Shown: piece by piece, positions 2,116-57,702 of the stretch
How positions within the stretch are numbered: position 1 is the first letter of the stretch
Layout of the letters: each line of letters begins with the position of its first letter
Assembly: GCA_905234175.1 (NCBI GenBank)
Contig: CAJOGX010000001.1
Location: 62,001 to 126,000, forward strand
Direction of reading: 5' to 3'
Source of the DNA: an uncultured Selenomonadaceae bacterium
GTDB lineage: Bacteria; Bacillota; Negativicutes; Selenomonadales; Selenomonadaceae
Length of the DNA: 64,000 bases
The notes under the pieces: model-generated
What the model saw: the letters and a program-made list of their open reading frames with translations, nothing else
Databases searched by the model: none
What the model was told of the DNA's origin: nothing
Made by a program: the position numbers and the translations under genes

Positions 2116-2218
2116 CAGCATTTCTTTTAGAAAAAGAAACGCTGGCAAAGAAAATGGGCCGAGTGACGCCATCCAGGCGTCAGTGCGGCCCGCGCCCCGT
2201 CCATGGGGCGCTTTTTTT
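2116..2218 (+). repeat. Three-stem intergenic element, copy 1 (terminator of gdhA)
   Basis: Three hairpins follow the gdhA stop: stem 1 at 2116-2144 (12 pairs, one A/C mismatch), stem 2 at 2156-2191 (GGGCCG/CGGCCC outer, TGACGCC/GGCGTCA inner), and stem 3 at 2192-2211 (GCGCCCC/GGGGCGC, loop GTCCAT). Seven T follow at 2212-2218, giving a plus-strand terminator. On the minus strand, stem 2 is followed by a U-rich stretch, so it may also stop the convergent permease gene. Related copies are at 35998, 38599 and 57592. Confidence 0.85.
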
Positions 2219-2232
2219 ATTACCAGTAAAAT

Positions 2233-3516
2233 TTACAGATACCGCAGCCAGATGTACACGGTGGAAATTATTATCGACAGAATCATAAGCGGGAACGCCG
2301 TGCGCATGAAACTGATAAACGAAATTGGTTTGCCGCGCTGCGCCGCCATGGACGCCACAACTACATTCGCGCTGGCACCAATCAGCGTCCCGTTTCCGCC
2401 CAGGCACGCGCCCAGCGCCAGGCTCCACCACATCGGTTCCAAATTCGACAAGCCCATTTCGCCCATGTCTTTTATCAGCGGAATCAGCGTCGCCACGAAC
2501 GGAATGTTGTCGATAAACGCCGAGGCTATCGCGCTCATCCACAAAATCAGAATCGCCGTCGCCGGTACGCTGCCGTTGGTAACTTTTATCGCCTCCGCCG
2601 CCAGCATTTTTATCACGCCGGTTTCGACCAGCGCGCCGACAAGTACGAACAAGCCCGCGAAAAAAAATATCGCCAGCCATTCGATTTTGCTCAAAACTTT
2701 GGCTATCATTTCCTCGTTGTGCGAGTACGTCACCAAAAGCAGCAAGCCAGCCCCGCTGAGCGCCGCCGTCGCCGTTTCCAAATGAAGCGCGCTGTGCATT
2801 ACGAACATCGACATTGTTATCACCAGCACGAACAGGCACTTTTTCAGTAAGGCCGCGTCCGTTATCTGGCTGTACTCGTTGAGCCTCATGACTTTATCCT
2901 GAAGTTCCGGCTGCGTGTGCAGTTTCGGTCCGTACAGCGCCAGCATTATCGCTATCGTCACGACGAAAATTATTACCGCCGGCAGGCTCATGTTCATTAT
3001 GAAATCCATGAAACTCAGTCCGACCGCCGAGCCAATCATAATGTTTGGCGGGTCTCCTACCAGCGTCGCCGTGCCGCCAATGTTCGAGCTGATTATCTGC
3101 GCCATGAGGAACGGTTTCACGTCAACTTTCAGCTGCGAGGCAATGTTGAACGTTATCGGCACCGTCAGCAAAACCGTAGTCACGTTGTCCAGAAAGCCGG
3201 AACAAACCGCCGTCAGCAAACTCAGCGCGACCAGAAGTTTCGTCGGCTGCGCTTTGACTTTTTTCGCCGCCCATATCGCCAGAAAATTGAACAAGCCCGT
3301 TTCGCTCGTCACGTTCACGATTATCATCATGCCCATTAAAAGTCCGAGCGTGTTGAAGTCTATGTGGTGAATTGCCGTTTCCTGTGAAATTATTCCCGCG
3401 ATTATCATCAGCATCGCGCCGACGATTCCAACGATTGTCCTGTGAACTTTTTCGGAAATTATCAGCACGTAGGCGGCGACAAAAATTACCACTGCCAACG
3501 TCGTCTGCATGTCCAT
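2233..3516 (-). CDS. ArsB/NhaD-type ion permease
   Basis: A 427-residue integral membrane protein with 11-12 predicted hydrophobic segments. The repeated signature of the arsenite/sodium-proton/P-protein permease superfamily is visible: GFLDNVTTVLLTVP near residue 107 and the matching AFIDNIPFVATLIPL near residue 335. GDPPN (about 154) and GGNGTLIGASANVV (about 373) are the two substrate-site loops. Substrate cannot be read from sequence; arsenite, Na+/H+ and dicarboxylate carriers all share the fold, and no ars genes are nearby. The start ATG at 3516 has a GAGGAAG site 7 nt upstream. It converges with gdhA over the shared structured element. Confidence 0.85.
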   Translation of the reverse strand: MDMQTTLAVVIFVAAYVLIISEKVHRTIVGIVGAMLMIIAGIISQETAIHHIDFNTLGLLMGMMIIVNVTSETGLFNFLAIWAAKKVKAQPTKLLVALSLLTAVCSGFLDNVTTVLLTVPITFNIASQLKVDVKPFLMAQIISSNIGGTATLVGDPPNIMIGSAVGLSFMDFIMNMSLPAVIIFVVTIAIMLALYGPKLHTQPELQDKVMRLNEYSQITDAALLKKCLFVLVITMSMFVMHSALHLETATAALSGAGLLLLVTYSHNEEMIAKVLSKIEWLAIFFFAGLFVLVGALVETGVIKMLAAEAIKVTNGSVPATAILILWMSAIASAFIDNIPFVATLIPLIKDMGEMGLSNLEPMWWSLALGACLGGNGTLIGASANVVVASMAAQRGKPISFISFMRTAFPLMILSIIISTVYIWLRYL

Positions 3517-3547
3517 TGCTACACTTCCTCAAATTTTGCTGCGTCGT

Positions 3548-3859
3548 TTAGAATTTTTTATCAGTGACAGTGAGCGTGATTTTTTCGCCGTCACGTTTGA
3601 TTTTGTAGCTGTAGCTCTTGACGCCGGACATTTCCAGTTCCATTTTGAGCGCGACCAGTTCCATACCGAGTTTTTCAGTGAGTTCCTTCGTGAAGCCGGA
3701 TTTCGCCAGCGGTTCAGGCGGCGCCTCTGCTGCCTCTACTAAACGGCGCTTTTCGGCTTTTTTCGCTGCCGTGAGAAGCTGCGACTCGACTGACTGTTCT
3801 TCGACGTAGTGCCGAATCATGTCTTTATCTGTCAGGCCGCGCGGTGGTTTTTTCATCAT
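3548..3859 (-). CDS. Small conserved-looking protein of unknown function
   Basis: A 103-residue, highly charged protein with no signal peptide or membrane segment. The middle part (about residues 20-60) is Ala/Glu/Lys-rich and probably helical. The C-terminus (SYSYKIKRDGEKITLTV) looks like two beta strands. I do not recognise the family. The ATG at 3859 is preferred over the in-frame GTG at 3868 because GGAG lies 9 nt before the ATG and overlaps the GTG. The gene follows glnS by 16 nt, so it is probably the last gene of the HD-glnS transcript. Confidence 0.6.
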   Translation of the reverse strand: MMKKPPRGLTDKDMIRHYVEEQSVESQLLTAAKKAEKRRLVEAAEAPPEPLAKSGFTKELTEKLGMELVALKMELEMSGVKSYSYKIKRDGEKITLTVTDKKF

Positions 3860-32713: not shown

Positions 32714-32731
32714 TTCGCTGAGGCGATTGAC

Positions 32732-33604: not shown

Positions 33605-33619
33605 ACGGAGGTTACCGCA

Positions 33620-33964: not shown

Positions 33965-33983
33965 GCGATTAATTTTGTTTAAA

Positions 33984-34026
33984 GCGGCGGCTGTTTAGGC
34001 TGATTCTTCGTTCCCGCAGCCGCCGT
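33984..34026 (+). promoter_or_regulatory. Hairpin between the secreted protein and EIIABC genes
   Basis: GGCGGCTG (33986-33993) pairs with CAGCCGCC (34017-34024) over a 23-nt loop, with no T run. It could stabilise or separate the mRNA segments so that EIIABC is made at a different level. Confidence 0.45.
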
Positions 34027-34060
34027 GAGGAATTATAAATTTTTAGGGAGAGTGGATTAA

Positions 34061-35989: not shown

Positions 35990-35997
35990 GCTCGTTT

Positions 35998-36108
35998 CAG
36001 CATTTCTTTCTGCGAGAAAGAAACGCTGGCAAAGAAAGCTGGGCCGAGTGACGCCATCCAGGCGTCAGTGCGGCCCGCGGCCCGTCCATGGGCCGCTTCT
36101 TTTTTTTT
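35998..36108 (+). repeat. Three-stem intergenic element, copy 2 (terminator of fruA)
   Basis: Stem 1 at 35998-36028, stem 2 at 36041-36076 (identical to copy 1), stem 3 at 36077-36096 (GCGGCCC/GGGCCGC, loop GTCCAT), then a T-rich run to 36108. Relative to copy 1, stem 3 has a swapped C-G to G-C pair, so pairing is preserved. Confidence 0.85.
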
Positions 36109-36116
36109 GCATAAAT

Positions 36117-37325: not shown

Positions 37326-37353
37326 CGAAATCCCTCCGTGATTTTTGCCGGTA

Positions 37354-37382
37354 ATTGTACGGAAAATTTTTTTCACAGTCAA
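37354..37382 (-). promoter_or_regulatory. Promoter of the MalY/PatB-like gene
   Basis: Minus strand TTGACT (37377-37382), 17-bp spacer, TACAAT (37354-37359), about 28 bp before the ATG. Confidence 0.8.
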
Positions 37383-37387
37383 ATTGC

Positions 37388-37417
37388 TTTACACCGCCGC
37401 GCCAATTCCTTTATAAT
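37388..37417 (+). promoter_or_regulatory. mtlD promoter
   Basis: TTTACA (37388-37393), 18-bp spacer, TATAAT (37412-37417). It lies back to back with the promoter of the divergent aminotransferase gene. Confidence 0.7.
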
Positions 37418-37444
37418 TTCGGAATTGATTAAGGGGGTCTGAAT

Positions 37445-38590: not shown

Positions 38591-38598
38591 CAAATCGT

Positions 38599-38707
38599 AA
38601 AAAGAAGAGGCGCCACATGGACGTGGCGCCGCCCGCGTTGAGAGCGTGATGCGAACACCGCGGGCTGTTTTCTTTTGTAACTTTTCTTTTGCACCAAAAG
38701 AAAAGTT
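38599..38707 (-). repeat. Three-stem intergenic element, copy 3 (divergent copy)
   Basis: Read on the minus strand after the stop at 38714: stem 1 at 38679-38707 (AACTTTTCTTTT/AAAAGAAAAGTT, fully paired), stem 2 at 38631-38665 (GCCCGCG/CGCGGGC), stem 3 at 38609-38630 (GGCGCCAC/GTGGCGCC with the same GTCCAT loop), then a T-rich run. Sequence differs from copies 1, 2 and 4, but the order, spacing and pairing are kept. On the plus strand, stem 2 is followed by TGTTTTCTTTT, which may stop mtlD transcripts. Confidence 0.75.
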
Positions 38708-38713
38708 AGTCCC

Positions 38714-40303: not shown

Positions 40304-40324
40304 GACACTCACCTTTCGGTTGAA

Positions 40325-42052
40325 TTATTTTTCCACGGTATCCACAGTCAAATCGAAAACCTGACGGCGCGCGTCCTGCAGGTGCAGTTTCATCTTAAGA
40401 AAACGGTCTTCGTCAATTTCGTAACTGATTCGCGCAACGGTATTTGGCTCAACCAGCGAGTTAAAAGTTTGCGCGTAGTCGTAGAGGATACGCATTTCGG
40501 GATCCCACTGGCTTTGACCGGCGAACAAATGAAATCTGACGCCGTTGGAACCAACGTGGAAATCGTGGTCGACTTCGCCCTGGCAGGGAATTGCAACGTT
40601 GGCGTCGATAATTTTCATCGGCAGCTGATTTTCCACGTCGATAAAAATTGCCTCAGCCAGGCGCGGACGTTCGTCTTTCTGCGGAGCGGCTGAAACTTCC
40701 GGCGCCTCCTCAAAAATTTCGTCCGTTTCGTCAGCGGTATTTTCCTCGTCGCTTATGTCAACCATTTTTTCCTTGTGAATTTTGGCTGTGATAAATTTTG
40801 ACATCGCCGCGCCAAGTGCTACGGCGTCCATTGGATTTTCGGCTTTGAGCACGGGGCACTTGCAGAATTTTTCCAGCGCGGTTTTTATCGGCAGGTACTC
40901 CGACATTCCGCCGGTAAGGAAAACGCAGTCAATTCCGTGCTCACCCATTGCCCTCAACTTTTTCAGCAGCTCATGCACCGGCTTAATAACGTGCTTATCG
41001 CGAAGTTTATCCGTCAAATCCCGCTTCGGGTGCCGGAAATCGTCGCTGAAAAACATCTGCGTATACTCCTGGTATTCCCTGTAGGTAACGTCGAGCTCAA
41101 CATTTTCGTGCTCCAAAAATTTTGCCAGCTTCCCGAAAGTGACATTGGTAATCGAATCTTCGTCGTAGCCCATGCTCAGCTGCGTACTGTACCATTTTTT
41201 ATACGCCTCGCAGTACGGCATAATTTGCGTCACCAAATCGTTGCGAATTTCCGGCGACTCGATAGCCGAATCGGGAATCTGATAGCGCTGGAAAAGTTTG
41301 TTGAGGACGCCAATCGCAACCTGTTCGTCGAAGTCGTTCCCGCCGAACTCAGTATACCTGCCAGTTATAACAAAGTGAATATCGTAGACGCCGTTCCTGT
41401 CAATCTGCAAATCGACAACGCAGATATCGCAGGTGCCGCCGCCAATATCGTAAACCATCATGCGTTTGGTCTCGGTGAAGTCAATCGCGTCGGAGTCGCC
41501 GGAAAGAATCTGGTCGTTTATGTAGCTGTAAAGGGCGGCGACGGGCTCTTCAAGGATTGAAACTTTCTGGAAACCGGCGAGATTTGCCGCGCGAACGGTA
41601 TCGCTTATCTGGTTTTGGCGGAAAGACGCGGGCACGGTAATCGTCACGTCAGGGAAAACGTCGTCGCCGCGCATCATAATCGTCCGGCGAATCGTGTCGT
41701 AGCAGACCTTGAGAATTTCGGCGGCGGCGTCCACCGGCGTAAACCCGTTGGCGTATTCAACCTTGCGTCCCATATCAATTTTGGTATTGTAGAGAATGCG
41801 TTTGTCGGCGCCGAAACTTTTGCGGTCGTGCGCGTACATGCCGACTTTAACTTCGTCGGTGTCGAAAAAAAGTACGCTCGGCAGGTAAAAATTTCTGTCG
41901 ACGCGCGTGGCGGTCACGTACTGGTTGATTGGGTGAACCATGGATTTCAAAATCCCGTACTTGGGCTTTTTGCAGGTCGCCATAACCGTGTTGGTCGTGC
42001 CCAAATCAATTCCCACGTGAATATTTGACTGAACGTTTGTGTCGCCGTTCAA
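40325..42052 (-). CDS. Divergent Hsp70-family chaperone
   Basis: A 575-residue Hsp70 relative distinct from DnaK. The ATPase domain (1 to about 425) is complete: phosphate-1 GIDLGTTNT (14-22), EEPVAALYSY (168-177), phosphate-2 VYDIGGGTCDI (200-210), and adenosine motif VFLTGGMSEY (377-386). An acidic linker (430-460) leads to a short beta-rich domain (about 462-570) like a substrate-binding SBD-beta. The alpha-helical lid and the EEVD-like end are absent. TTG 42052 follows AAGGAGG within the upstream gene's last codons. It is co-transcribed with a GrpE-like protein and a helical protein. Confidence 0.88.
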   Translation of the reverse strand: MNGDTNVQSNIHVGIDLGTTNTVMATCKKPKYGILKSMVHPINQYVTATRVDRNFYLPSVLFFDTDEVKVGMYAHDRKSFGADKRILYNTKIDMGRKVEYANGFTPVDAAAEILKVCYDTIRRTIMMRGDDVFPDVTITVPASFRQNQISDTVRAANLAGFQKVSILEEPVAALYSYINDQILSGDSDAIDFTETKRMMVYDIGGGTCDICVVDLQIDRNGVYDIHFVITGRYTEFGGNDFDEQVAIGVLNKLFQRYQIPDSAIESPEIRNDLVTQIMPYCEAYKKWYSTQLSMGYDEDSITNVTFGKLAKFLEHENVELDVTYREYQEYTQMFFSDDFRHPKRDLTDKLRDKHVIKPVHELLKKLRAMGEHGIDCVFLTGGMSEYLPIKTALEKFCKCPVLKAENPMDAVALGAAMSKFITAKIHKEKMVDISDEENTADETDEIFEEAPEVSAAPQKDERPRLAEAIFIDVENQLPMKIIDANVAIPCQGEVDHDFHVGSNGVRFHLFAGQSQWDPEMRILYDYAQTFNSLVEPNTVARISYEIDEDRFLKMKLHLQDARRQVFDLTVDTVEK

Positions 42053-42053
42053 A

Positions 42054-43721
42054 TTAATCTTCCTCCTTCTTCATGGAAATCAGCGGGAGAACGAGCTCTT
42101 CGCCCTTGTAGCGCCAGCCTGGGTACTTGAGGACGCCTTCGTTTAGTCCCTCCACAATTTCCTTTTCGTTCACGGAATAGTTTACATTTGCGTCGTCGGA
42201 CGTGAACTTGATTTTCCTGCCGAGCTTTTTGGTTTCGCAGGGGGTAATTCCGAGGTTGTTGAAAATGAACAGCAGGTTTTGAATCGCGGTTCTGACTTTT
42301 TCGGGGGAAATTTCGCTGGCGCCGAGGTGCATGAGGAAAAGTTCGTTAAGCGGAGCGCCGTATTTGCCGTCGCACAGTCCCTGAAAAATTTCGCGCAGAG
42401 CCTTGGAGTACTGCGAAAAATCGCTGCGGAAATCCTGCGACTTCAGACTTTCGTAATAGGCGAGGTCGCGCTGCAGGTTGTAAATTTCGGAATCCTTCTG
42501 CGCGATAATCATTTCGTATTTTTTGGCGGCCTTGTCGAGTTCACTTTCAACGTTCTGATCCGTGCGAATGCGCGCCTTGCCGTTGGCGTTGCTCTTATCG
42601 CGGCGGGCAATTTCCTCCAGCAGAATGTCGTTGAGGTACAAAAGTTCCGGCTTGTAGGGCGTGAGTTCGCTTTGAAAGTTCAGGCGGAAATTTTCACTGC
42701 GCTCTAAAAGATATTCGCGCGTAATTTTTTTCCGGCTGTCCGCGAAGAAATTTTGAATGTTGCGCGAAAGCTGATTGGTCTGGTGAATGACTTTTTCGCG
42801 CAGGTCGTCGGGATTGGTGGCGCCGTTAGCAAGGGCGATTTTGACGTTGGCGGAGGCCAGCAGGTCGAACAAAACTTTTTCGTCGCGAATCGCGCTGACT
42901 TTGTTTCCGAAAACGACTATGCAGATATTTTTTTTCTGGCGGGCGTACTCTTTAACTTCGTCGCAGTAGGCGTACTGGGGAAATTTCTCGCTCCAGCCGG
43001 CTTCGAGGCTGTCGAAAAAGTCGAGGAACTCGCCGTTGGTAATTTGAATTTCAATCAGCGCGTCGAGTTTGAGCTTGAAAATAATTCTGTCGGTTTGCGG
43101 GACGGATAATTTTTCACAGAGGCGAAGGAAAATATCGCGGCGTTCGAGTTCGCGTTCGGAGCGGCGTCGGGCGTTGCCGGAAGATTTCTGGCGTTTGAGC
43201 GCGTCTTTAACGACGGTATCAACCAGCGTCAGAAAAGGTTCCTCGAACTTTTTGAGCAGCGCCGAAAAAGCATTGTAATCGTTTTCGCTGAGCCCCTGCA
43301 CGTAGCGGCGGTGGAAGCGGTCAATTTCGCGGGCAGTTTCATTTTCCATTTCGATATCGGAAAAATTACAGCGGTCAAGGCTGGCGTTGCGCATTTTCAC
43401 TTCGTCGACCGCCGAGAAATACGAATCCGCCAGATAAATCTGCTCCATAATCACACAGCTGGCGAGGAGCTCGATGAAAAATTTTCTGGCGCGAATTTTT
43501 TCCGGCGCGTTCGGGAAAATGTACTCAGAAATTCGCCGGTACTCCCTGCCAAATTCTGCAAGCTCGCCGAGGCGTTTGGCGTCCCCGTAAAGTTCCACGA
43601 TGTAATAATCGCGCTGCTGCCCGTACGAAAAATCTCGCCGCACAAGTACGCCGCCAGTCAGGTGAAAGAGCAAATCCACTTTCAAGCGGTTAAGTCCTGT
43701 CAAAGCAAATTGGCTGTCCAA
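42054..43721 (-). CDS. Large protein with GrpE-like C-terminus, putative exchange factor
   Basis: A 555-residue soluble protein. The first about 380 residues are mostly helical and of unknown fold. A coiled coil spans about 385-440. The last about 100 residues follow the GrpE pattern: a helical pair, then FNNLGITPCETKKLG, and the closing hairpin GWRYKGEELVLPLISMKK, matching the 'GY..g..lRPA.V.V' end of GrpE. GrpE proteins release ADP from Hsp70, and the next gene encodes an Hsp70. TTG 43721 has GGGGGTG 7 nt upstream. The GrpE link is my reading of a weak pattern. Confidence 0.6.
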   Translation of the reverse strand: MDSQFALTGLNRLKVDLLFHLTGGVLVRRDFSYGQQRDYYIVELYGDAKRLGELAEFGREYRRISEYIFPNAPEKIRARKFFIELLASCVIMEQIYLADSYFSAVDEVKMRNASLDRCNFSDIEMENETAREIDRFHRRYVQGLSENDYNAFSALLKKFEEPFLTLVDTVVKDALKRQKSSGNARRRSERELERRDIFLRLCEKLSVPQTDRIIFKLKLDALIEIQITNGEFLDFFDSLEAGWSEKFPQYAYCDEVKEYARQKKNICIVVFGNKVSAIRDEKVLFDLLASANVKIALANGATNPDDLREKVIHQTNQLSRNIQNFFADSRKKITREYLLERSENFRLNFQSELTPYKPELLYLNDILLEEIARRDKSNANGKARIRTDQNVESELDKAAKKYEMIIAQKDSEIYNLQRDLAYYESLKSQDFRSDFSQYSKALREIFQGLCDGKYGAPLNELFLMHLGASEISPEKVRTAIQNLLFIFNNLGITPCETKKLGRKIKFTSDDANVNYSVNEKEIVEGLNEGVLKYPGWRYKGEELVLPLISMKKEED

Positions 43722-43765
43722 TTTTGAGCACCCCCATAACAAATATCCAGACGCACGATTTTTTA

Positions 43766-43794
43766 ATTATAATCAGCAAAAATTTTGGCGTCAA
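43766..43794 (-). promoter_or_regulatory. Promoter of the Hsp70-like operon
   Basis: Minus strand TTGACG (43789-43794), 17-bp spacer, TATAAT (43766-43771). A near-consensus housekeeping promoter; no CIRCE or other heat-shock operator is visible. Confidence 0.8.
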
Positions 43795-43795
43795 C

Positions 43796-43825
43796 TTGAA
43801 AAACAATCCCGCCCGCGTTTATAAT
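43796..43825 (+). promoter_or_regulatory. galU promoter
   Basis: TTGAAA (43796-43801), 18-bp spacer, TATAAT (43820-43825), divergent from the Hsp70-operon promoter. Confidence 0.75.
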
Positions 43826-43859
43826 AATTGGGAAAAATTTTCACGGGCGGGTGAAGTTT

Positions 43860-44750
43860 ATGAAATTGCGAAAAGCGGTGATACCGGCGGCGGGGCTCGG
43901 AACCAGATTTTTACCGGCGACGAAGGCTCAGCCTAAGGAAATGCTGCCAATCGTCGACAAGCCGACAATCCAGTACATAATCGAGGAAGCGGCGTCGGCG
44001 GGCGTCGAAGATATAGTAATAGTCACGGGCAGGAGCAAGCGCTCAATCGAGGATCATTTCGACCGGTCAATCGAACTGGAAATGGAGCTGGAAAAGGCGG
44101 GAAAATCCGACTGGCTGGCGATGGTCAAATCAATTTCGGAAATTGCGAACATACATTTCATTCGGCAGAAACAGCCGCTGGGTCTGGGGCACGCGGTATT
44201 GACGGCGAGCCATTTCATTGGCGACGAGCCGTTCGCGGTACTTTTGGGCGACGACGTTGTAGTTTCCAAAAAGCCGGTACTTCAGCAAATGGTTGAGGTT
44301 TTCAACGAGTACAAGACTTCGATTTTGGGCGTGCAGGAAGTTTCGCCGGAAGTCGTGCACCGCTACGGAATTGTTGACTGCCGCCACGTGGACGACGACG
44401 TTTACAAAGTTCGCGATTTGGTTGAGAAGCCGCAAAAAGAAAATGCGCCAGGCAATATCGCGATTCTGGGGCGATACATTCTGACGCCGACAATTTTCAG
44501 TTATCTTGAGAATCAGACGCCAGGCGCGAACGGCGAAATTCAGCTGACGGATTCTCTCAAGCGGCTCGCCAAAGATGAGGCGATGTACGCTTATGTTTTC
44601 AAGGGGCACCGCTACGATGTCGGCACGAAAATTGGATTTCTGCAGGCGAATATTGAATTTGCATTGCGAAACCCCGAGGTCGCCGACGATTTGAAAAATT
44701 ATTTGAACGAGTTACATGAAAATATGGAGCAAATGCTGGCTTACGACTGA
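43860..44750 (+). CDS. galU: UTP-glucose-1-phosphate uridylyltransferase
   Basis: Makes UDP-glucose for surface glycans. The 296-residue nucleotidyltransferase begins KAVIPAAGLGTRFLPATKA (about 5-23), with KEMLPIVDKP next. The uridine-site motif LLGDDVV is near 126, and VEKPQKENAP near 190 supplies the catalytic Lys. ATG 43860 is chosen over the in-frame GTG at 43851 because GGCGGGTGA lies in between. It overlaps the convergent phosphatase gene by 10 nt. Confidence 0.95.
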   Translation: MKLRKAVIPAAGLGTRFLPATKAQPKEMLPIVDKPTIQYIIEEAASAGVEDIVIVTGRSKRSIEDHFDRSIELEMELEKAGKSDWLAMVKSISEIANIHFIRQKQPLGLGHAVLTASHFIGDEPFAVLLGDDVVVSKKPVLQQMVEVFNEYKTSILGVQEVSPEVVHRYGIVDCRHVDDDVYKVRDLVEKPQKENAPGNIAILGRYILTPTIFSYLENQTPGANGEIQLTDSLKRLAKDEAMYAYVFKGHRYDVGTKIGFLQANIEFALRNPEVADDLKNYLNELHENMEQMLAYD

Positions 44751-45202
44751 GCCAATTTTTTGAGCAGTTCAGCGCAGGCGCGGGAAACGTCGCGGTAGGT
44801 TGCGGTGTAGTCGTCGGTAATGTAGGGGTCGTCAACGTCGCGATGTTCGCCGGCGAAATCCATCATGAGAAAAATTTTGCCGTCGGGGTCGCCGCCGGAA
44901 ATCTGTTTGAGGTCGCGGACATTCATTTTGTCCATGCCGATAACGTAATCGCAGTTTTGATAATTCGCGCGGGTGAACTGTCTGGACATGCGGAACTCGA
45001 AAGGAACGCCGTGGATTTTGAGTTCGTAGCAGGTGCCGGAGGAAACTGGCGTGCCAGCGCACGGGTGACAGCCGGAAGATTCGACGGAAATTTTATCGCT
45101 GAGACCTGCCTGCGCGACGAGATTTTTCATGACGAACTCAGCCATAGGCGAGCGGCAGATATTTCCGAGGCAGACGAAATTAATTTTCAGCAGGGTGCTC
45201 AC
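44741..45202 (-). CDS. Low-molecular-weight protein tyrosine phosphatase
   Basis: A 153-residue LMW-PTP. The CX5R signature is CLGNICRS (residues 11-18), and the general-acid Asp is in DDPYITDD near 124. Bacterial members dephosphorylate tyrosine kinases and enzymes of exopolysaccharide synthesis, so its place beside galU is suggestive; no bacterial tyrosine kinase gene is seen here. Start is probably GTG 45202, inside the end of the upstream gene (23-nt overlap). Confidence 0.93.
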   Translation of the reverse strand: MSTLLKINFVCLGNICRSPMAEFVMKNLVAQAGLSDKISVESSGCHPCAGTPVSSGTCYELKIHGVPFEFRMSRQFTRANYQNCDYVIGMDKMNVRDLKQISGGDPDGKIFLMMDFAGEHRDVDDPYITDDYTATYRDVSRACAELLKKLAQS

Positions 45203-46214
45203 CGCCAGTCATTCTGCGAAGGAGAATTTCAACTTCGGATTTGAGCGCCTGCGACTGCCGCTGGTGATCTTCAGCGATTTTGAGCGTCGACGCCCGCTTA
45301 TCTTCGAGCCACTTCGCGTAATCGTCGGCGTAATTAATTTCGAGGTCGCAGATTTTCAGATAAAGATTGTGCAGGGTTTCAGCGGGCTTAGGCGCAGAAA
45401 TGCCGAAAAGTTCCTGCTTGCGCGCCTCCCAGTCTTTTTTGTAAACGTCGAGCATGAGCGTGCGAACTTCAGCGCGAACGCTGTCCTGTTTGAGCGCGTC
45501 GAACGCCGCAAGTTTTGAATATTGCTGTTCCGCTTCGAGGATTGTGGCGTCGTGGCGGCTGATAATTTCGTTGGTCTTTTCAAGGTAGCTGTCGAGCTGC
45601 GTGCGGCGAATTTCGGTGAGCGTGTTGACAAACTCCTGGAAATTTTTCAGACGGACGATTTTCCAGTCGCCGTTGTCTCCGCGCGAAAGTTCGGTTTCCA
45701 AAATAAATTCGCGTGGGAGTTCAGGCTGATAAATTCTGATTCTGGCGGTAGCTATATTCGCGTTGACGGGGTGCATGTCGATACCGTCGAGCCCGCGATA
45801 AATGATTTTATCGAAGCCGGTGCGCGACAAAAGTTCCTGAACTCCGGCATTTTTCTGCGCGTTGAAGTCGCCGGTCGCCACGTACGAATCGATAGCGTCT
45901 TTCAAACTGGCGAGCAGCGGCGTCTTCAAAATCTCGGTGAAGTCTTTCAGCGCGTCTTTTGTATCTTCATTAAAAACGCGCTCGGAATCCGTCAGCCCGT
46001 CGATTAAACTGCCGTAGCTGTCGTTCAGCACCCTATCCACGTCGACAAAGCGGTAAAAATATTCCCTGTCGTGGTTGGCGATAGCCTGTTCGGCGAGCTG
46101 CACGGCGTATTCGGGCTTGCTCTTGTCGATACTGGAATACCAGTACGCGCCCCCGCCGATTAAAATTACAGCGGCGCAAATTCCCGCGCCAATTCTCAAT
46201 TTTTTTATATTCAA
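45180..46214 (-). CDS. Membrane-anchored protein, DUF2939-like
   Basis: A 344-residue protein with one N-terminal membrane helix (about 8-25, IGAGICAAVILIGGGAYWY) and a large part outside the cytoplasm. The segment YAVQLAEQAIANHDREYFYR then FVDVDRVLNDSYGSLI (about 36-70) resembles the DUF2939 pattern (paired 'A...HD...F...VD'). A helical, Glu/Lys-rich C-terminal third follows (about 215-344). Function unknown. TTG 46214 is chosen for AAGGAGAG 6-7 nt upstream; the frame upstream of it lacks a ribosome site. Confidence 0.7.
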   Translation of the reverse strand: MNIKKLRIGAGICAAVILIGGGAYWYSSIDKSKPEYAVQLAEQAIANHDREYFYRFVDVDRVLNDSYGSLIDGLTDSERVFNEDTKDALKDFTEILKTPLLASLKDAIDSYVATGDFNAQKNAGVQELLSRTGFDKIIYRGLDGIDMHPVNANIATARIRIYQPELPREFILETELSRGDNGDWKIVRLKNFQEFVNTLTEIRRTQLDSYLEKTNEIISRHDATILEAEQQYSKLAAFDALKQDSVRAEVRTLMLDVYKKDWEARKQELFGISAPKPAETLHNLYLKICDLEINYADDYAKWLEDKRASTLKIAEDHQRQSQALKSEVEILLRRMTGGEHPAEN

Positions 46215-46312
46215 TGGAAACTCTCCTTTGACGAAATTACTGCTGAAATATTCGGCGGGCGGAAAGTTATTCCTGCATTGAGCGCGCTGTCCACTGAAGC
46301 TGATGAACCGCG

Positions 46313-46343
46313 AAAAAAAGCCGGAAGCCCGAAAGCCTCCGAC
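46313..46343 (-). terminator. Terminator after the HPr-like gene
   Basis: Minus strand GTCGGAGGC pairs with GCTTCCGGC (46320-46343, nine pairs including two wobbles), followed by seven T (46313-46319). It separates the HPr-like gene from the DUF2939-like gene. Confidence 0.8.
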
Positions 46344-46370
46344 TGCACAGGTTCCGATATTCAAACTGAA

Positions 46371-46727
46371 TCAGCTGTCGAGATTTTCCTCGCCGCTGAT
46401 AATTTTTGAAACTCTGCCAAACGCCTCCTTGTTGTTCACACCACGAATCGTGAGCACCAAACTTTTTTCAGGCATAATACCGAGATTGACCAGCGACAAA
46501 ATGCTGGACGTGTCACCGACCTTCGAGCCGGACGCAATTTCAATCACGCAGCCGGTTTCCTCAGCCGCCTTGACGATAAGCGCACACTCGCGAAAGCAAA
46601 GCTTGTTCTTCGCAACCAGAATGAATGAAACAACAGCGGGGCGATTTTCTGCGACTTTTTCAGCCAAAGACCTCGCCTCCTCGCGGGTAGATATATTTTT
46701 ACGATTTGTTTTATATGCAAATTTCAT
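46371..46727 (-). CDS. HPr-like protein with Cys in place of the phospho-His
   Basis: A 118-residue protein whose residues 29-118 align without gaps to HPr. Where HPr has His15-Ala-Arg-Pro-Ala, this protein has C44-F-R-E-C, so the PTS phosphorylation site is lost although Arg46 remains. The regulatory Ser46 position is kept: S75 in GDTSSILSLVNLGI. An extra 28 residues precede the HPr fold. B. subtilis Crh is a precedent for an HPr relative that has lost His15 but keeps Ser46 and acts with CcpA. ATG 46727 has GGAGAA 7-8 nt upstream. It has its own promoter and terminator. Confidence 0.75.
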   Translation of the reverse strand: MKFAYKTNRKNISTREEARSLAEKVAENRPAVVSFILVAKNKLCFRECALIVKAAEETGCVIEIASGSKVGDTSSILSLVNLGIMPEKSLVLTIRGVNNKEAFGRVSKIISGEENLDS

Positions 46728-46748
46728 TTTGAATTTCTCCTCTCGAAA

Positions 46749-46784
46749 ACATTGTCCGGTGTCAGTTTCGGCGCCCGATAATGT
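46749..46784 (-). promoter_or_regulatory. Leader hairpin in the HPr-like 5' UTR
   Basis: The two 15-nt arms 46749-46763 and 46770-46784 (ACATTGTCCGG... with ...CGATAATGT) pair with one mismatch and three wobbles around a 6-nt loop. It is located between the promoter and the ribosome site of the HPr-like gene and may control its translation. Confidence 0.4.
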
Positions 46785-46813
46785 TCGCGTCAACTTCCCT
46801 GTCGACGTTTTGA

Positions 46814-46842
46814 ATTTTAGCACGGATTTTGATTCTGCGCAA
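46814..46842 (-). promoter_or_regulatory. Promoter of the HPr-like gene
   Basis: Minus strand TTGCGC (46837-46842), 17-bp spacer, TAAAAT (46814-46819). It leaves a leader of about 80 nt. Confidence 0.6.
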
Positions 46843-46930
46843 GCAGAAATTGTTATTGTTTGAAGAAAAATTTAATCGGATTTCGCCGGATTTTCCCGCC
46901 TTTTTTCAGATTAAGCTCAAATTCCCGTGC

Positions 46931-46959
46931 TTGACGTTGGATTTTGCAGGAAATATAAT
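46931..46959 (+). promoter_or_regulatory. Promoter of the flhB-like/dapF/remA/gmk/rpoZ/coaBC operon
   Basis: TTGACG (46931-46936), 17-bp spacer, TATAAT (46954-46959). The downstream genes up to 51161 have gaps of 0-12 nt or overlaps, so this probably drives all seven. Confidence 0.85.
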
Positions 46960-46996
46960 ATGCGGAGTTACTTAGAAAATTTAGGACGGAGCGGCA

Positions 46997-47335
46997 ATGG
47001 ACGAAGAATTTCTTTCGGAAGAGGAGCGGATAGCCAGGCAGAAAGCGGTTGCGCTGAAGTATGACCTGCTACAGGACGCCGCGCCGCGCGTTATCGCAAA
47101 GGGCAAAGGGCACGTCGCTGAGCACATTTTGGCCGCCGCCCAGAAAAATTCCATTCCCGTTTACCAGAATAAAACGCTCGTCAATATGCTCATGGCGCTG
47201 GAAATCGACCGCGAAATTCCGCCCGACCTGTACAAGGCTATCGCCGAAGTCATGGCGTACGTTTACAAGATGGACAAGGACAGGGAACGCGCCAACGCCG
47301 CGCGAAATCTCAACGCCGGCCGCCCGCTCATTTAG
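46997..47335 (+). CDS. Stand-alone FlhB C-terminal domain protein
   Basis: A 112-residue cytoplasmic protein matching the C-terminal domain of the flagellar/type III export gate protein FlhB: AKGKGHVAEHILAAAQKN near residue 34, IPVYQNKTLVNMLM near 53, then IPPDLYKAIAEVMAYVYKMD near 75. The self-cleaving NPTH site and the membrane part are absent. Such FlhB-tail proteins (YlqH in B. subtilis) occur widely with unclear function. No flagellar genes are near. Confidence 0.85.
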   Translation: MDEEFLSEEERIARQKAVALKYDLLQDAAPRVIAKGKGHVAEHILAAAQKNSIPVYQNKTLVNMLMALEIDREIPPDLYKAIAEVMAYVYKMDKDRERANAARNLNAGRPLI

Positions 47336-47347
47336 GAAGTGAACGCC

Positions 47348-48022
47348 GTGCCGATTTTCAACGCGCCAATCCTCGAAATTTCCGCCGCCGAAACTCGTCG
47401 CTACGCCGGTCTGAAAAATTCCGCCAGCTTCGACGAAAAACAAATCGCTGACGCCTGCGAAACCGCGCTGCTGCTGCTGGAAGTGCGCGGCGTCTGGAAA
47501 ATTTACGACTACGACTGCACAAGCCGCGCCGTCAAATCTGAACCGGCTTTTTTTATTGAAGGCGCCTCGATTGCCAATCACCTTGCCGGATGCGAAAAAG
47601 TTGCGTGTCTGGCGGTTACCGTCGGCGAAAACGTTGAGCGCGAAGTCACCAGAAATTTCAGCGCTGGGAATTACGTTGCCTCGGTGCTGCTGGACGCCGC
47701 CGCTACTGCCGCCGTTGAGCAGGCCGCTGACGCTCTCGAAAAAATTATCGCCCGCGAAGCCGCTAAGCAAAGTTTAAAAATGCGCTGGCGGTTCAGCCCA
47801 GGCTACGGCGACTGGAAACTCGATAATCAGCGCGAATTTTTTAAGCTGACCGGCGCCGAGGAAATTGGCATGCGCCTCAGTTCCGCGCTCATGCTCATTC
47901 CCAGAAAATCCGTCACCGCTATCGTCGGGCTCGAAAGAGTTACCTCCAACGAAAAAATTCACCGCGCGAAAAAGTCCTGCGCGACCTGCAGTAAACTCGA
48001 CTGCCCCGCGCGAATTGTTTAA
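47348..48022 (+). CDS. Stand-alone MetH activation (SAM-binding) domain protein
   Basis: A 224-residue protein resembling the C-terminal reactivation domain of cobalamin-dependent methionine synthase. RFSPGYGDWKL near 155 binds SAM in MetH, and the tail IPRKSVTAIVGLERV fits too. A cysteine cluster, CATCSKLDCPAR, closes the protein. Separate activation proteins work with split MetH enzymes in Negativicutes and Clostridia; the rest of MetH is not in the window. GTG 47348 has AGGAAG 8 nt upstream. Confidence 0.85.
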   Translation: MPIFNAPILEISAAETRRYAGLKNSASFDEKQIADACETALLLLEVRGVWKIYDYDCTSRAVKSEPAFFIEGASIANHLAGCEKVACLAVTVGENVEREVTRNFSAGNYVASVLLDAAATAAVEQAADALEKIIAREAAKQSLKMRWRFSPGYGDWKLDNQREFFKLTGAEEIGMRLSSALMLIPRKSVTAIVGLERVTSNEKIHRAKKSCATCSKLDCPARIV

Positions 48023-48034
48023 GGAGCTGGTATT

Positions 48035-48847
48035 TTGCAGAAATTTGAAAAGTGGCAGGGCTGCGGCAACGACTTCGTGATTTTCGACCGCCGCGAAGAT
48101 AATTTTATCGACGACGCTGAAAAAGTTTCGGCGCTTTGCGACAGACATTTTGGAATTGGCGCGGACGGCGTCATTTACGTTTTACCGAGCGAAATTGCGG
48201 GCGTTCGCATGAGAATTTTCAACGCGGACGGCTCCGAGGCGGAAATGTGCGGCAACGGCATTCGCTGTTTCGCTAAGTTCCTGCTCGGCGAAAATTCCGG
48301 CAGTCTGAGCGTAGAAACCGGCGCCGGTGTGCTGACTGTCGACGTTTCTAAAAATTCCGTGACCGTCGATATGGGCGAGCCGATTCTCAGCGCCGAAAAA
48401 ATTCCCGTGACTGGCTTCGGCAGTTCCCAAATCGTCAGCGAAAATATTTCCGTCGGCGGCAAAACTTTCAAGATGACCTGCGTTTCGATGGGCAATCCGC
48501 ATTGCGTGATTTTTGTCGACGACCTCAGCAAAATTAATCTCGCGCAGATTGGTCCGCAGTTCGAGACGCACAAATTTTTCCCGCGCCGCACCAATACCGA
48601 ATTTGTTCAGGTGACCGGCGAAAATGAACTCAGAATGCGCGTCTGGGAACGCGGGAGCGGAATAACGCTGGCTTGCGGTACGGGCGCCTGTGCGACGGCG
48701 GTTGCGGCGAATTTGAACGGGCTGGCGGGAAAATCTGCTACGGTGCACCTTGACGGCGGCGATTTGCATATTGACTGGCGCGCGAACAACCGCGTTTACA
48801 TGACCGGAGCGGCGGAAAAAATTTTCGCGGGGAATCTTTATGTTTAA
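48035..48847 (+). CDS. dapF: Diaminopimelate epimerase
   Basis: Converts LL- to meso-diaminopimelate for peptidoglycan and lysine. The 270-residue protein starts [15 protein letters not shown]. The two catalytic cysteines are in [11 protein letters not shown] (about 72) and [15 protein letters not shown] (about 213). TTG 48035 follows AAGGAG 8-9 nt upstream. Confidence 0.96.
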
Positions 48848-49118
48848 AATGGTGAACGTGGGTTTCGGGAACGTCGTGGCGGCTCAGCGAATCGTGGCGA
48901 TGATAAATCCGGAATCTGCGCCGAGTAAAAGAATCGTGGCTCAGGCGCGCGAACTGGGCAAGCTGATCGATACGACGCACGGCAGACGAACCCGCGCGGT
49001 GATTGTTATGGACAGCGGGCACGTGATTTTATCTTCGCTCCAGCCGCAAACTATCGGCGAGCGCGTCGGCAAGGAAAAGGACGAAAAAATTATCGCTGTC
49101 AAGGAAGTGGAAAATTAA
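48840..49118 (+). CDS. remA: RemA/YlzA (DUF370) regulator
   Basis: A 92-residue DUF370 protein. [18 protein letters not shown] (about 5-22), [20 protein letters not shown] (about 46-65) and QPQTIGER are the family signature. B. subtilis RemA is a DNA-binding activator of biofilm matrix genes that forms arc-shaped oligomers. In other Firmicutes, as here, the gene precedes gmk and rpoZ. It overlaps the end of dapF by 8 nt. Confidence 0.93.
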
Positions 49119-51227: not shown

Positions 51228-51229
51228 AA

Positions 51230-56212: not shown

Positions 56213-57036
56213 CTGAGCGCTCTTACGAAAAATTTTTCCGGCAGAATCGGCTGCCGCATTTGTGGTGCCCTGGCTGCGGCAACGGAATTGTTATGAAAGC
56301 TATCGTGCAGGCGGTCGAGAAAAAGCTCGGCTGGACGCAGGACAACACGATTATCGTCAGCGGGATTGGCTGTTCTTCGCGCGCCAGCGGCTACATGGAT
56401 TTCGACACGCTCCATACGGCGCACGGCAGGGCAATTCCTTTCGCGACGGGTATCAAGCTCGCCAATCCGAAATTGAACGTAATTGTTATAACTGGCGACG
56501 GCGACTGCACGGCGATTGGCGGCAACCACTTCATTCACGGCTGTCGGCGCAACGTCGATTTGACGGTGATTCTGTTCAACAATAACATTTATGGTATGAC
56601 TGGCGGGCAGGCTTCGCCAATGACGCCGCTCGGCAAAAAGGCGACGACTGCGCCCTACGGTTCGATTGACAGACCTTTTGACGCCTGCAAGCTCGCTGAG
56701 GCCGCCGGTGCAACTTACGTCGCGCGTTCGACGGCGTTTCACGTTCAGCACTTAACAAAAATGATTGAAGACGGTCTGGACAACAGGGGCTTTTCGTTTA
56801 TTGAAGCGCTCGTTCAGTGCCCCACGGCTTACGGGCGCCGGAATAAAATTGGTGAGCCCGCAAAAATGATGGCGTGGATGCGCGATAACGCTATAATGAA
56901 AAGTGCATGGGACAAGCTCACCGACGATAAAAAGACCGGCGACAAATTTCCAATCGGGCTGTTCTACCGCGCGGAAACTGAAACTTATGACGAGGCTTAT
57001 CACCACGTTATCGAGTTGGCTGGAGGTGCGAAATGA
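56209..57036 (+). CDS. korB: 2-oxoacid:ferredoxin oxidoreductase, beta subunit
   Basis: A 275-residue TPP-binding subunit. The N-terminal CPGCGNG (about 17-23) and the TPP motif TGDGDCTAIGGNHFIHGCRR (about 84-103) with NNNIYGMTGGQ (about 120-130) are complete, as in KorB. It joins KorA in the catalytic unit. Confidence 0.94.
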   Translation: MTERSYEKFFRQNRLPHLWCPGCGNGIVMKAIVQAVEKKLGWTQDNTIIVSGIGCSSRASGYMDFDTLHTAHGRAIPFATGIKLANPKLNVIVITGDGDCTAIGGNHFIHGCRRNVDLTVILFNNNIYGMTGGQASPMTPLGKKATTAPYGSIDRPFDACKLAEAAGATYVARSTAFHVQHLTKMIEDGLDNRGFSFIEALVQCPTAYGRRNKIGEPAKMMAWMRDNAIMKSAWDKLTDDKKTGDKFPIGLFYRAETETYDEAYHHVIELAGGAK

Positions 57037-57557
57037 GAAAGCAGCTTAGATTATCTGGCTCCGGCGGGCAGGGTGTAATAACGGCGGCGATAATTCTGGC
57101 AGAGGCGGCGGTTTCCGAGGGCAAGCAGGCGGTTCAGTCGCAGTCTTATGGACCGGAAGCGCGCGGCGGGGCGTCGAAATCCGAAGTCATAATCGACGAC
57201 GAAAAAATTTTCCACCCGCACGTTAAGGCGCCGGACTTCGTGCTGGCGATGACGCAGAAGGCCGCCGACAAATATTACACAGATTTAAATGCGGACGGAG
57301 TTTTGATTCTGGACGAAGATTTAGTGCCGACGCCGCCGCAGTTCAAAAATATAATCCGCGTGCCGATAACCAAACTGGCGGTTGAAAAAGTCGGGAAGGC
57401 GCTGTTCGCAAATATCGTCGCGCTGGGCGTGCTGGCGAAAGTCACAAAGCTCGTCGACTTCGAGACAATAAAAAAATCCGTGGCGAACAGAGTACCGCCG
57501 CACACGGTTGAACAAAACATGCTGGCGTTGCAGATTGGTTTTGACGCCGTAAATTAA
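57033..57557 (+). CDS. korC: 2-oxoacid:ferredoxin oxidoreductase, gamma subunit
   Basis: A 174-residue gamma subunit: SGSGGQGVITAAIILAEAA (about 6-24), QSQSYGPEARGGASKSEVI (about 35-53) and PPHTVEQNMLALQIG near 154. It completes a four-subunit KorDABC complex that makes acyl-CoA and reduced ferredoxin, or works in the reductive direction for 2-oxoglutarate. Confidence 0.94.
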   Translation: MRKQLRLSGSGGQGVITAAIILAEAAVSEGKQAVQSQSYGPEARGGASKSEVIIDDEKIFHPHVKAPDFVLAMTQKAADKYYTDLNADGVLILDEDLVPTPPQFKNIIRVPITKLAVEKVGKALFANIVALGVLAKVTKLVDFETIKKSVANRVPPHTVEQNMLALQIGFDAVN

Positions 57558-57591
57558 AATTTTCCAACGTTGCACTTATACAAACGCTTGT

Positions 57592-57702
57592 AAAGGAGAG
57601 GCGCCCCACGGATGGGGCGCGGGCCGCACTGACGCCTGGATGGCGTCACTCGGCCCTGTCTTTCTTTGCCAGGCGTTTCTTTCTGCACCAGAAAGAAATG
57701 CC
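57592..57702 (-). repeat. Three-stem intergenic element, copy 4
   Basis: Minus-strand orientation after the stop at 57712: stem 1 at 57672-57702 (GGC.TTTCTTTCT pairing with compensated ends), stem 2 at 57621-57656 (identical to copies 1 and 2), stem 3 at 57601-57620 (GCGCCCC/GGGGCGC, loop ATCCGT), then CTCTCCTTT. Read on the plus strand, stem 2 is followed by TGTCTTTCTTT, so it may also end the kor transcript. Confidence 0.85.

What the first reader, a model, noticed from the sequence alone, without database searches (positions are those of the whole stretch)
2116..57702. A four-copy, three-stem intergenic element that looks like a bidirectional terminator for convergent genes
Seen: copies at 2116-2218 (+), 35998-36108 (+), 38599-38707 (-) and 57592-57702 (-). 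Each begins 7-10 nt after a stop codon and fills the gap between two convergent genes. All four convergent gaps over 100 bp in the window have one; the shorter or overlapping convergent junctions (rpoD/hemB, galU/phosphatase, rsmA/flavoprotein, murA/membrane protein) do not. Three copies share an identical 36-nt central double stem. The other stems differ but stay paired: CAGC/GCTG becomes GGC/GCC in stem 1, and GCGCCCC/GGGGCGC becomes GCGGCCC/GGGCCGC in stem 3. Copy 3 has largely different sequence but the same three-stem order and the same GTCCAT loop. Forward, stem 3 ends in a T run; in reverse, stem 2 is followed by a T/C-rich tract. Inference: a bidirectional terminator cassette that has spread or been homogenised by gene conversion. 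A protein-binding or replication-transcription conflict role is also possible.
Basis: partly seen in the sequence, partly recalled or inferred. Interest (0 to 1): 0.8.

Follow-up and report, generated by a model that had tools for sequence, protein, structure and literature searches.

The report
Triplex-hairpin cassette at gene ends
A repeated piece of non-coding bacterial DNA, found mostly just after genes, keeps the sequence pattern of a three-stranded helix plus two perfect hairpins; some copies look like transcription stop signals, and the three-stranded part recurs in distant bacteria with no known job.

Summary
The four copies are real and belong to a family with 50 strong matches in this genome and matches in 18 of 24 other species of the genus. 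The terminator reading is partly supported: stem 3 plus a T tail occurs in 22 of 49 copies, mostly convergent ones, and at the one gene end compared closely the element stands where most relatives have an ordinary terminator. But about half the copies are not convergent, 26 of 49 lack a T tail on both sides, and outside the window 1 of 6 (or 2 of 7) long convergent gaps sampled carries a copy. The main finding lies elsewhere. Stem 1 and the purine spacer behind it form a mirror repeat whose strands change together: 112 of 121 copies in the genus; 108 of 124 sites from about nine phyla, with no direct repeat among those 124. This is the signature of an intrastrand triple helix. Many sites add a covarying loop-to-flank helix, a pseudoknot. 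Stem 3 turns over while its loop stays ANGGAY (110 of 112, minus strand), the published CsrA/RsmE motif. Closest known: G/C-rich intrastrand-triplex (PIT/BoxC/TMECO) repeats of E. coli. This is an A/T-rich, often pseudoknotted variant; function untested.

The parts
2116..2218 (+). copy 1, whole element between convergent genes ending at 2106 (+) and 2233 (-)
2121..2154 (+). copy 1 triplex module: Y arm TTTCTTTT 2121-2128, R arm AAAAGAAA 2132-2139, third tract AAAGAAAA 2147-2154 (mirror of the R arm)
   Evidence: mirror test
2156..2191 (+). copy 1 stem 2 (36 nt, identical in copies 1, 2, 4)
2192..2218 (+). copy 1 stem 3 (2192-2211, loop GTCCAT) and T tail 2212-2218
35998..36108 (+). copy 2, whole element between convergent genes ending at 35989 (+) and 36117 (-)
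36003..36038 (+). copy 2 triplex module: Y arm TTTCTTTC 36003-36010, R arm GAAAGAAA 36016-36023, third tract AAAGAAAG 36031-36038 (8-nt mirror; a ninth stem pair next to the loop is not mirrored, so one search lists this copy as not full)
36041..36076 (+). copy 2 stem 2
36077..36108 (+). copy 2 stem 3 (36077-36096) and T tail; the second site in the list of terminator-like sites for 30000-49000
38599..38707 (-). copy 3, whole element (divergent subfamily) between convergent genes ending at 38714 (-) and 38590 (+)
38668..38704 (-). copy 3 triplex module: Y arm TTTTCTTTT 38704-38696, R arm AAAAGAAAA 38690-38682, third tract AAAAGAAAA 38676-38668 (arm is its own mirror)
38631..38665 (-). copy 3 stem 2 (different sequence, same place)
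38599..38630 (-). copy 3 stem 3 (38630-38609, loop GTCCAT) and T-rich tail; first in the list of terminator-like sites for 30000-49000
57592..57702 (-). copy 4, whole element between convergent genes ending at 57712 (-) and 57557 (+)
57659..57698 (-). copy 4 triplex module: Y arm TTTCTTTCT 57698-57690, R arm AGAAAGAAA 57684-57676, third tract AAAGAAAGA 57667-57659 (9-nt mirror)
57621..57656 (-). copy 4 stem 2
57592..57620 (-). copy 4 stem 3 (57620-57601, loop ATCCGT) and a tail poor in T (5 of 8)

Best explanation
In this genus the element is an interspersed, positionally kept 3'-end cassette. Stem 3 with its T tail ends transcription of the gene on its left; where a second gene converges on it, the other side has in some copies gained a T tail too, so a minority work in both directions. 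In front of the terminator the cassette carries a hairpin whose purine arm is mirrored by the next purine tract, so that one strand can fold into an intrastrand triple helix: purine motif on the + strand, or U.A-U / C+.G-C pyrimidine motif on the - strand, where the added loop-flank helix of other lineages makes an H-type pseudoknot. Shown: the family, its positions, the three-way and two-way covariation, the invariant loops and the T-tail bias. Inferred: termination, formation of the triplex in the cell, and that the triplex stabilises or marks the transcript end. Copies are exchanged or converted within a genome (inferred from different subfamilies at the same junctions).
For: Family and positions. 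Mirror covariation in the genus: 112 of 121 parsed copies fully mirrored; 29 of 35 distinct arm/tract pairs against a shuffle mean of 6.2, maximum 14 of 10,000. Test with the third tract left free after its first three letters: 108 of 124 sites mirror, 0 direct repeat, 16 other. Loop-flank helix: 31 of 70 unique pairs have 4 bp or more (offsets up to 2 allowed), shuffles mean 6.1, maximum 15 of 2,000. Stems covary: 94.4% of cells paired, 75 cells with double changes, 0 of 500 shuffles for four of five measures. T tails sit mostly where genes read in. At one gene end 9 of 10 relatives read have an ordinary hairpin-plus-T terminator and one has another subfamily of the element (by eye). Four junctions with both flanking genes orthologous keep the element in the same orientation with different sequence.
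Against: 27 of 49 own copies have no good right T tail. In other phyla the left gene reads in at only 41 of 78 sites. Invariant loops are not explained by termination. PIT/TMECO triplex repeats showed no terminator activity in published tests as cited in PMC4666352. The number of terminator-like sites in a 19-kb stretch is not above shuffles, although copies 3 and 2 head the list. In one search the fifth measure, further pair types, is not above shuffles (22 against 20.5; 128 of 500 as high). No transcript data were available.
Confidence: 0.5

Rival explanations
1. Plain bidirectional intrinsic terminator: stem 3 plus T run forward, stem 2 plus the CTTTCTTT tract in reverse; stem 1 and the spacer symmetry have no role of their own.
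For: Convergent enrichment (27 of 55 against 14 of 99); right T tail in 16 of 23 convergent and 6 of 26 other copies; the inner reverse tract has at least 6 T in 8 in 46 of 52; two convergent junctions with a flipped copy in another species, each judged from one orthologous flank.
Against: The inner reverse tract is as T-rich in non-convergent copies as in convergent ones (24 of 26 against 22 of 26), so it is not tuned to a converging gene. The mirror and loop conservation are unexplained. The same triplex module occurs in other phyla without the left-gene bias.
Confidence: 0.2
2. Selfish interspersed repeat (REP-, BIME- or MITE-like) whose single-stranded triplex fold is the handle for an unknown mobilising enzyme; gene-end placement only reflects where insertion is tolerated.
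For: Matches differ widely between species of the genus (0 to 97, the latter equal to the number of candidates scored); Methylobacter carries the module inside units with 14-bp inverted ends (28 end sites, 0 for the reversed-pattern control); in Variovorax L150 two modules face each other; different subfamilies stand at the same sites in different species.
Against: No Y1/RAYT transposase (PF01797) found in this 82%-complete genome or in G004, G006, G010, G011, G015, though element-bearing G002 and G014 have one match each. No gene called inside the Methylobacter units read. Orientation with the upstream gene in this genus (45 of 55) and same-site, same-orientation persistence between species.
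Confidence: 0.15
3. The minus-strand transcript is a CsrA/RsmA decoy or target: stem 3 offers a C-(ANGGAY)-G hexaloop, stem 2 often a second GGA loop, and the triplex pseudoknot stabilises the end.
For: 110 of 112 stem-3 loops are ANGGAY and 112 of 112 are closed by C-G while the stems turn over; this is the published high-affinity form (PMC4005645, passages); TCC loops (GGA on the minus strand) are 36 of 119 perfect hairpins beside the module in the 122 sites read, against 3 with GGA; in that set the right gene reads the minus strand at 49 of 78 sites (p 0.03); csrA is present in this genome.
Against: In the genus the right gene does not read the minus strand more often than chance (33 of 55 own, 30 of 64 relatives). 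csrA is also present in species without model matches (G003, G007, G009, G013). 47 of 106 stem-2 loops are GTGAY, not GGA. A second control, loops with CCT, gave 14, of which 9 are TCCT loops counted in both. The loci printed there with TCC loops (lists cut at 12) include no Bacteroidota.
Confidence: 0.1
4. A DNA-level structure (cruciform plus triplex) that acts as a barrier to replication or transcription forks, or as a recombination-prone site.
For: Stem pairs are Watson-Crick on both strands (stem 2: 635 of 636; stem 3: 777 of 783, with 4 G.T, 1 A.C, 1 other), as expected if both strands or the DNA itself matter; TMECO is reported with local genome variability and, as cited there, polymerase blocking in vitro (PMC4666352).
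Against: Orientation bias to the upstream gene's end in this genus; position relative to replication direction was not tested. The hairpin finder picks the best-paired position, which favours paired cells.
Confidence: 0.05

Closest known systems
Intrastrand triplex repeats: PIT elements / BoxC / TMECO (Holder et al. 2015, PMC4666352, read in part; the earlier Hoyne and Maher work only as cited there)
   Same: Pyrimidine arm - loop - purine arm - short linker - purine tract mirrored to the arm; intergenic; many copies; uneven between close relatives; inverted pairs occur.
   Different: TMECO is G/C-rich (CCCTCNCCC...). This family is A/T-rich, a class that the paper found less enriched over scrambled sequence than the G/C-rich one. 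Here arms of many sequences covary with the third tract, a loop-flank helix (pseudoknot) is added at many sites, and in this genus two perfect hairpins, sometimes a T tail, and a gene-end position are added. The main text of the paper holds no TTTCTTT or AAAGAAA string, no 'pseudoknot' and no 'convergent'; its database was not searched.
Bidirectional intrinsic terminators and uptake-sequence hairpins at tail-to-tail gene pairs (Kingsford et al. 2007, PMC1852404, passages read)
   Same: Hairpins flanked by A on one side and T on the other; a repeated sequence adopted as terminator and enriched between convergent genes.
   Different: Two GC-rich hairpins and a triplex hairpin; loops invariant; many copies without a T tail or away from convergent pairs.
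H-type pseudoknots with U.A-U major-groove triples (telomerase RNA, some riboswitches; recalled, not read)
   Same: On the minus strand of copies with the loop-flank helix, the order P1, U-rich third strand, stem, P1' places the U-rich strand as loop 1 beside the purine arm, in parallel (my inference).
   Different: Longer run of possible triples (about 8-11); interspersed repeat rather than a single gene or riboswitch; no RNA shown.
CsrA/RsmE binding hairpins (PMC4005645, passages read)
   Same: ANGGAX hexaloop directly on a stem closed by C-G.
   Different: Found here only on the minus strand of a repeat; no binding or transcript shown; X is a pyrimidine in all 110 ANGGAY loops counted.

Membership tests
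Intrastrand triplex motif, class II (PIT/ITxF definition) | Y-R hairpin stem of 6-15 nt, then after a short linker a purine tract that mirrors the purine arm | tested here: met
   112 of 121 parsed copies fully mirrored; 108 of 124 sites of the contig scan. Some linkers (7-8 nt) and loops exceed the 1-6 nt that ITxF allows, so that program might miss them.
Intrastrand triplex motif, class II (PIT/ITxF definition) | forms a triplex in solution | not testable with these tools
   needs CD/NMR or probing
TMECO/BoxC subfamily | G/C-rich consensus CCCTCNCCC...GGGNGAGGG...GGGNGAGGG | tested here: not met
   stems are A/T-rich TTTCTTT/AAAGAAA types in the copies printed; consensus read
Intrinsic terminator, forward | GC-rich hairpin followed at once by a T-rich tail | tested here: inconclusive
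   22 of 49 own copies have at least 6 T in 8; copies 1-3 of the window yes, copy 4 no
Bidirectional terminator | terminator on both strands of the same element | tested here: inconclusive
   outer T tails on both sides in 6 of 49; forward tail plus any reverse tract in 18 of 52 (an earlier count with seven unreliable rows); no transcript ends available
REP/BIME mobilised by RAYT | RAYT (Y1_Tnp) gene in the genome | tested here: not met
   PF01797: no match in G000 (82% complete) nor in G004, G006, G010, G011, G015; one match each in G002 and G014
MITE | terminal inverted repeats and target duplication | tested here: inconclusive
   no shared inverted ends seen by eye in the own-genome copies; 14-bp inverted ends in Methylobacter; target duplications not tested
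CsrA/RsmE binding hairpin | ANGGAX hexaloop on a C-G closed stem | tested here: met
   110 of 112 stem-3 loops on the minus strand; 9 of 121 copies had no stem 3 that the script could read; consensus from PMC4005645
CsrA/RsmE binding hairpin | binds CsrA; transcribed | not testable with these tools
   needs a binding assay and RNA-seq
Any Rfam family | match above gathering score | tested here: not met
   0 matches in the window; in six loci the only match above gathering is a tRNA, the six others (four miRNA families, Chlorobi-RRM, FuFi-1) lie far below their gathering scores

The most novel reading that the evidence does not exclude
A bacterial family of triple-helix pseudoknots, telomerase-like in topology and spread over about nine phyla, is carried as an interspersed repeat; in Negativicutes and several Gammaproteobacteria it is joined to invariant ANGGAY hairpins, so that one strand is a stabilised CsrA-type RNA and the other a terminator: one cassette read differently on its two strands.
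Probability: 0.15. Interest if true: 0.9.

Novelty: new variant of a known kind. Interest (0 to 1): 0.7.

Why it matters
Intrastrand triplex repeats are known in E. coli with a triplex shown in vitro but no agreed function. Here changes in three tracts that keep their mirror relation, and in two more that keep the pseudoknot helix, give evolutionary evidence in many lineages that the third strand matters, and name natural variants with which to test triplex formation and function. If the gene-end role holds, it also links a DNA or RNA triplex to transcription termination and shows a repeat family taking over terminators gene by gene.

Tried and rejected
Mobilisation by RAYT/IS200-type transposases: PF01797 not found in this genome and five element-rich relatives (one match each in G002 and G014). 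Watson-Crick switch instead of a triplex (spacer pairing with the 5' arm): this predicts a direct repeat of the 3' arm; among 80 asymmetric arms 72 are full mirrors and 1 a full direct repeat, and 0 of 124 direct in the contig scan. A known RNA family: none in Rfam. A strict tie to convergent genes: rejected (28 of 55 own copies are not convergent; 1 of 6 or 2 of 7 long convergent gaps outside the window). A 3'-UTR role of the minus strand in this genus: no bias of the right gene, though 49 of 78 in the contig-scan set. Ortholog search with the copy-3 neighbour found only its own genome among 25. A search of the open-access library for four sequence strings gave six unrelated papers (listing only); some searches were the other paper searches, and no description of this A/T-rich family was seen in their listings. 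PMC4666352 was read in its abstract, most of the introduction, part of the methods, most of the results and the first part of the discussion; PMC4005645 and PMC1852404 only as passages.

Dropped rows and weak spots. Of 85 matches, 30 were dropped by hand as the opposite strand of a listed copy, leaving 55; of 79, 8 such and 3 duplicates were dropped, leaving 68; the relatives' copies are mainly the best-scoring ones, so not a random sample. Two of 123 copies could not be parsed. Before the mirror count a G at the linker end of the purine arm was set aside. One search dropped 41 sites near locus ends and 1 without genes; one search dropped 4 relative copies at edges. The tail count mislocated stem 3 in seven rows; one search replaces it for the tails and leaves out 6 of 55 copies (two short, four without a readable stem 3). 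In one search the own-genome row was mis-framed by my script (an antisense ORF); the own sequence was read, and loci L277 and L280-L283 were not read. About ten of the loci are Selenomonadales, and one of these assemblies has the contig lengths of G020, so they are not independent of the genus. Phylum names for that scan are mine, from record titles. Gene calls come from my own codon-score caller, not a published one; two settings disagree at the junction C3:148426.


Full report
Observation. Copies 1, 2 and 4 share the 36-nt middle stem. Copy 4 has loop ATCCGT and a poor T tail.

Family. BLASTN with copy 2 finds 37 matches in the 1.99-Mb assembly. A covariance model built from 28 own copies finds 73 matches, 50 of them at E <= 5.6e-10; the weaker ones are mostly partial copies or the opposite strand of copies. 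Of 41 genomes searched, 19 match: the own genome, 18 of 24 others of the genus, and 0 of 16 from other families of the class. Structure pairs covary: 94.4% of cells paired, 16 pairs and 75 cells with changes on both sides; 0 of 500 shuffles reach these values or the covariation score, but the number of further pair types is not above shuffles (22 against 20.5, 128 of 500 as high). Standard pairs changed on one side only are rare (5 cells against 75 changed on both). In 106 and 112 copies in which a script recognised stem 2 and stem 3, stem 2 has 635 Watson-Crick pairs of 636 and stem 3 has 777 of 783, with 4 G.T, 1 A.C and 1 other (the script chose the best-paired position, which favours paired cells). 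Constraint on both strands, or on the DNA, would give this.

Stem 1 is more than a hairpin. The purine tract behind it is the mirror image of the stem's purine arm, and the two change together: GAAAGAAA with AAAGAAAG, AAAAGAAAAA with AAAAAGAAAA, AAAGAGAAAA with AAAAGAGAAA, AAAAAAAGAAA with AAAGAAAAAAA. Of 121 parsed copies (2 of 123 not parsed) 112 are full mirrors; of 80 with an asymmetric arm 72 are full mirrors and 1 a full direct repeat; of 35 distinct arm/tract pairs 29 are full mirrors against a shuffle mean of 6.2 and maximum of 14 in 10,000. Window copy 2 is among the nine listed as not full: 8 of its 9 arm letters are mirrored. A mirror, not a direct repeat, is what a third strand in a triple helix requires; a Watson-Crick switch would give a direct repeat.

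Other phyla. At 124 distinct sites the tract is the mirror in 108, the direct repeat in 0, something else in 16. By record titles (phylum names assigned by me) the mirror sites lie in Pseudomonadota, Bacteroidota, Bacillota, Lentisphaerota, Ignavibacteriota, Spirochaetota, Nitrospirota, Hydrogenedentota and delta-proteobacterial groups; the one Campylobacteraceae bin and the two Bacilli bins gave only 'other'. About ten of the loci are Selenomonadales, the order of the genus itself. The 3' part of the hairpin loop often pairs with the bases right after the third tract: 4 bp or more (offsets up to 2 allowed) in 31 of 70 unique loop/flank pairs, shuffles mean 6.1 and maximum 15 of 2,000, and in 25 of 54 distinct loops. 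That makes an H-type pseudoknot. On the minus strand the U-rich tract then becomes loop 1 lying beside the purine arm in parallel, the arrangement I recall from telomerase RNA; on the plus strand the purine tract would lie antiparallel, which is stable as DNA but, as far as I recall, not as RNA. Some relatives in the genus have this extra helix (for example L069, L073, L075, L076, by eye); the four window copies, with loops of 3-5 nt, do not.

Loops. While stem 3 changes, its loop on the minus strand stays ANGGAY in 110 of 112 copies, closed by C-G in 112 of 112; stem 2 has NGGAN loops in 59 and GTGAY in 47 of 106. Beside the module in the contig-scan set 36 of 119 perfect hairpins have TCC in the loop, 3 have GGA, and 14 have CCT (9 of them TCCT loops counted in both). 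ANGGAX on a C-G closed stem is the published high-affinity CsrA/RsmE form (PMC4005645), and csrA is present in this genome, but also in species of the genus without model matches; in all 18 of 25 genomes have it. I take this as a lead: the loops look recognised by something, and a plain terminator does not need that.

Position. Of 55 own copies 27 are convergent, 18 follow a gene reading in from the stem-1 side with a co-directional neighbour, 6 are the reverse, 4 divergent. The left gene reads in at 45 of 55 (p = 2e-6), stop to element 12 nt in the median; the right gene reads in at 33 of 55 (p 0.18). In 64 placed copies of relatives the numbers are 45 (p 0.002) and 30 (p 0.71). Convergent copies are enriched against element-free gaps of 30 bp or more (27 of 55 against 14 of 99). 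Outside the window 1 of 6 convergent gaps of 100 bp or more carries the element, or 2 of 7 if the junction at C3:148426, on which two settings of my gene caller disagree, is counted. In the contig-scan set the left gene reads in at 41 of 78 (p 0.73) and the right gene at 49 of 78 (p 0.03).

Termination. A right T tail (6 of 8) is present in 22 of 49 measurable copies: 16 of 23 convergent, 6 of 26 others (p 0.002); 21 of 40 where the left gene reads in, 1 of 9 where it does not (p 0.03). An outer left T tail is present in 7 of 28 where the right gene reads in and 0 of 21 otherwise (p 0.015). Both tails: 6 of 49; neither: 26 of 49 (which corrects). The inner reverse tract, which is the third strand, is T-rich in 46 of 52 whatever the context. 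At the 3' end of the copy-1 gene, 9 of the 10 orthologs that I read (of 15 found besides the own gene) end in an ordinary hairpin-plus-T terminator and one (G006, same convergent pair) in another subfamily of the element (read by eye). Four junctions whose two flanking genes are orthologous keep the element in the same orientation with different arms, and two convergent junctions, each matched on one flank only, hold a flipped copy. So at these places the element stands where a terminator is expected, position is kept, and sequence turns over.

What is known. The closest class is the intrastrand triplex repeats of E. coli (PIT, BoxC, TMECO; PMC4666352): same strand order, intergenic, no promoter or terminator activity found in earlier work as cited there, function unknown, DNA triplex shown in vitro for the G/C-rich type. 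The present family is A/T-rich, has natural compensatory variants, and at many sites a pseudoknot. The search for its sequence strings in the open-access library gave only unrelated papers. RAYT transposases were not found in this and five other element-rich genomes. In Methylobacter marinus the module sits inside units of about 300-390 bp with 14-bp inverted ends, so mobility of some carriers is likely.

Verdict. Interest 0.7; new variant of a known kind.

Noticed in passing
L167, L184, L197, L247 and L285-L312 (Methylobacter marinus): Repeat units with 14-bp inverted ends ACTGATGTTACGCA, 28 end sites, the reversed-pattern control 0; end pairs 240-575 bp apart; those of about 300-390 bp often hold the triplex module, some pairs (L290, L298, L306, L310) do not; no gene called between the ends.
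   Followed up: partly
L150 (Variovorax sp. Root411), from about 6870: Two triplex modules face each other in inverted orientation around a few hundred bases of non-coding DNA (seen in the alignment).
   Followed up: no
L104-L107 (own genome): Triplex module with a different tail (CTTTCGCCCGTCAGGATTTTTCGCG...), without stems 2 and 3: a second architecture in the same genome.
   Followed up: no
own-genome copies without T tail, e.g. L012, L011, L059, L090, L096: Shared right extension CTCT(N)AATTGCKTR-like, and a shared left extension GCTTTGTGCCT before the AACTTTC type of stem 1 (L015, L019, L094): the element may once have been longer.
   Followed up: no
L103: A copy whose stem-1 loop carries a further insert of about 25-30 nt that itself forms an inverted repeat.
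   Followed up: no
stem 1 of most own copies: An A.C mismatch on the plus strand (GCATTTC/GAAACGC) that is a G.U pair on the minus strand, kept in copies of that type, while stem 3 keeps a G.T or A-T pair at its loop on the plus strand.
   Followed up: partly
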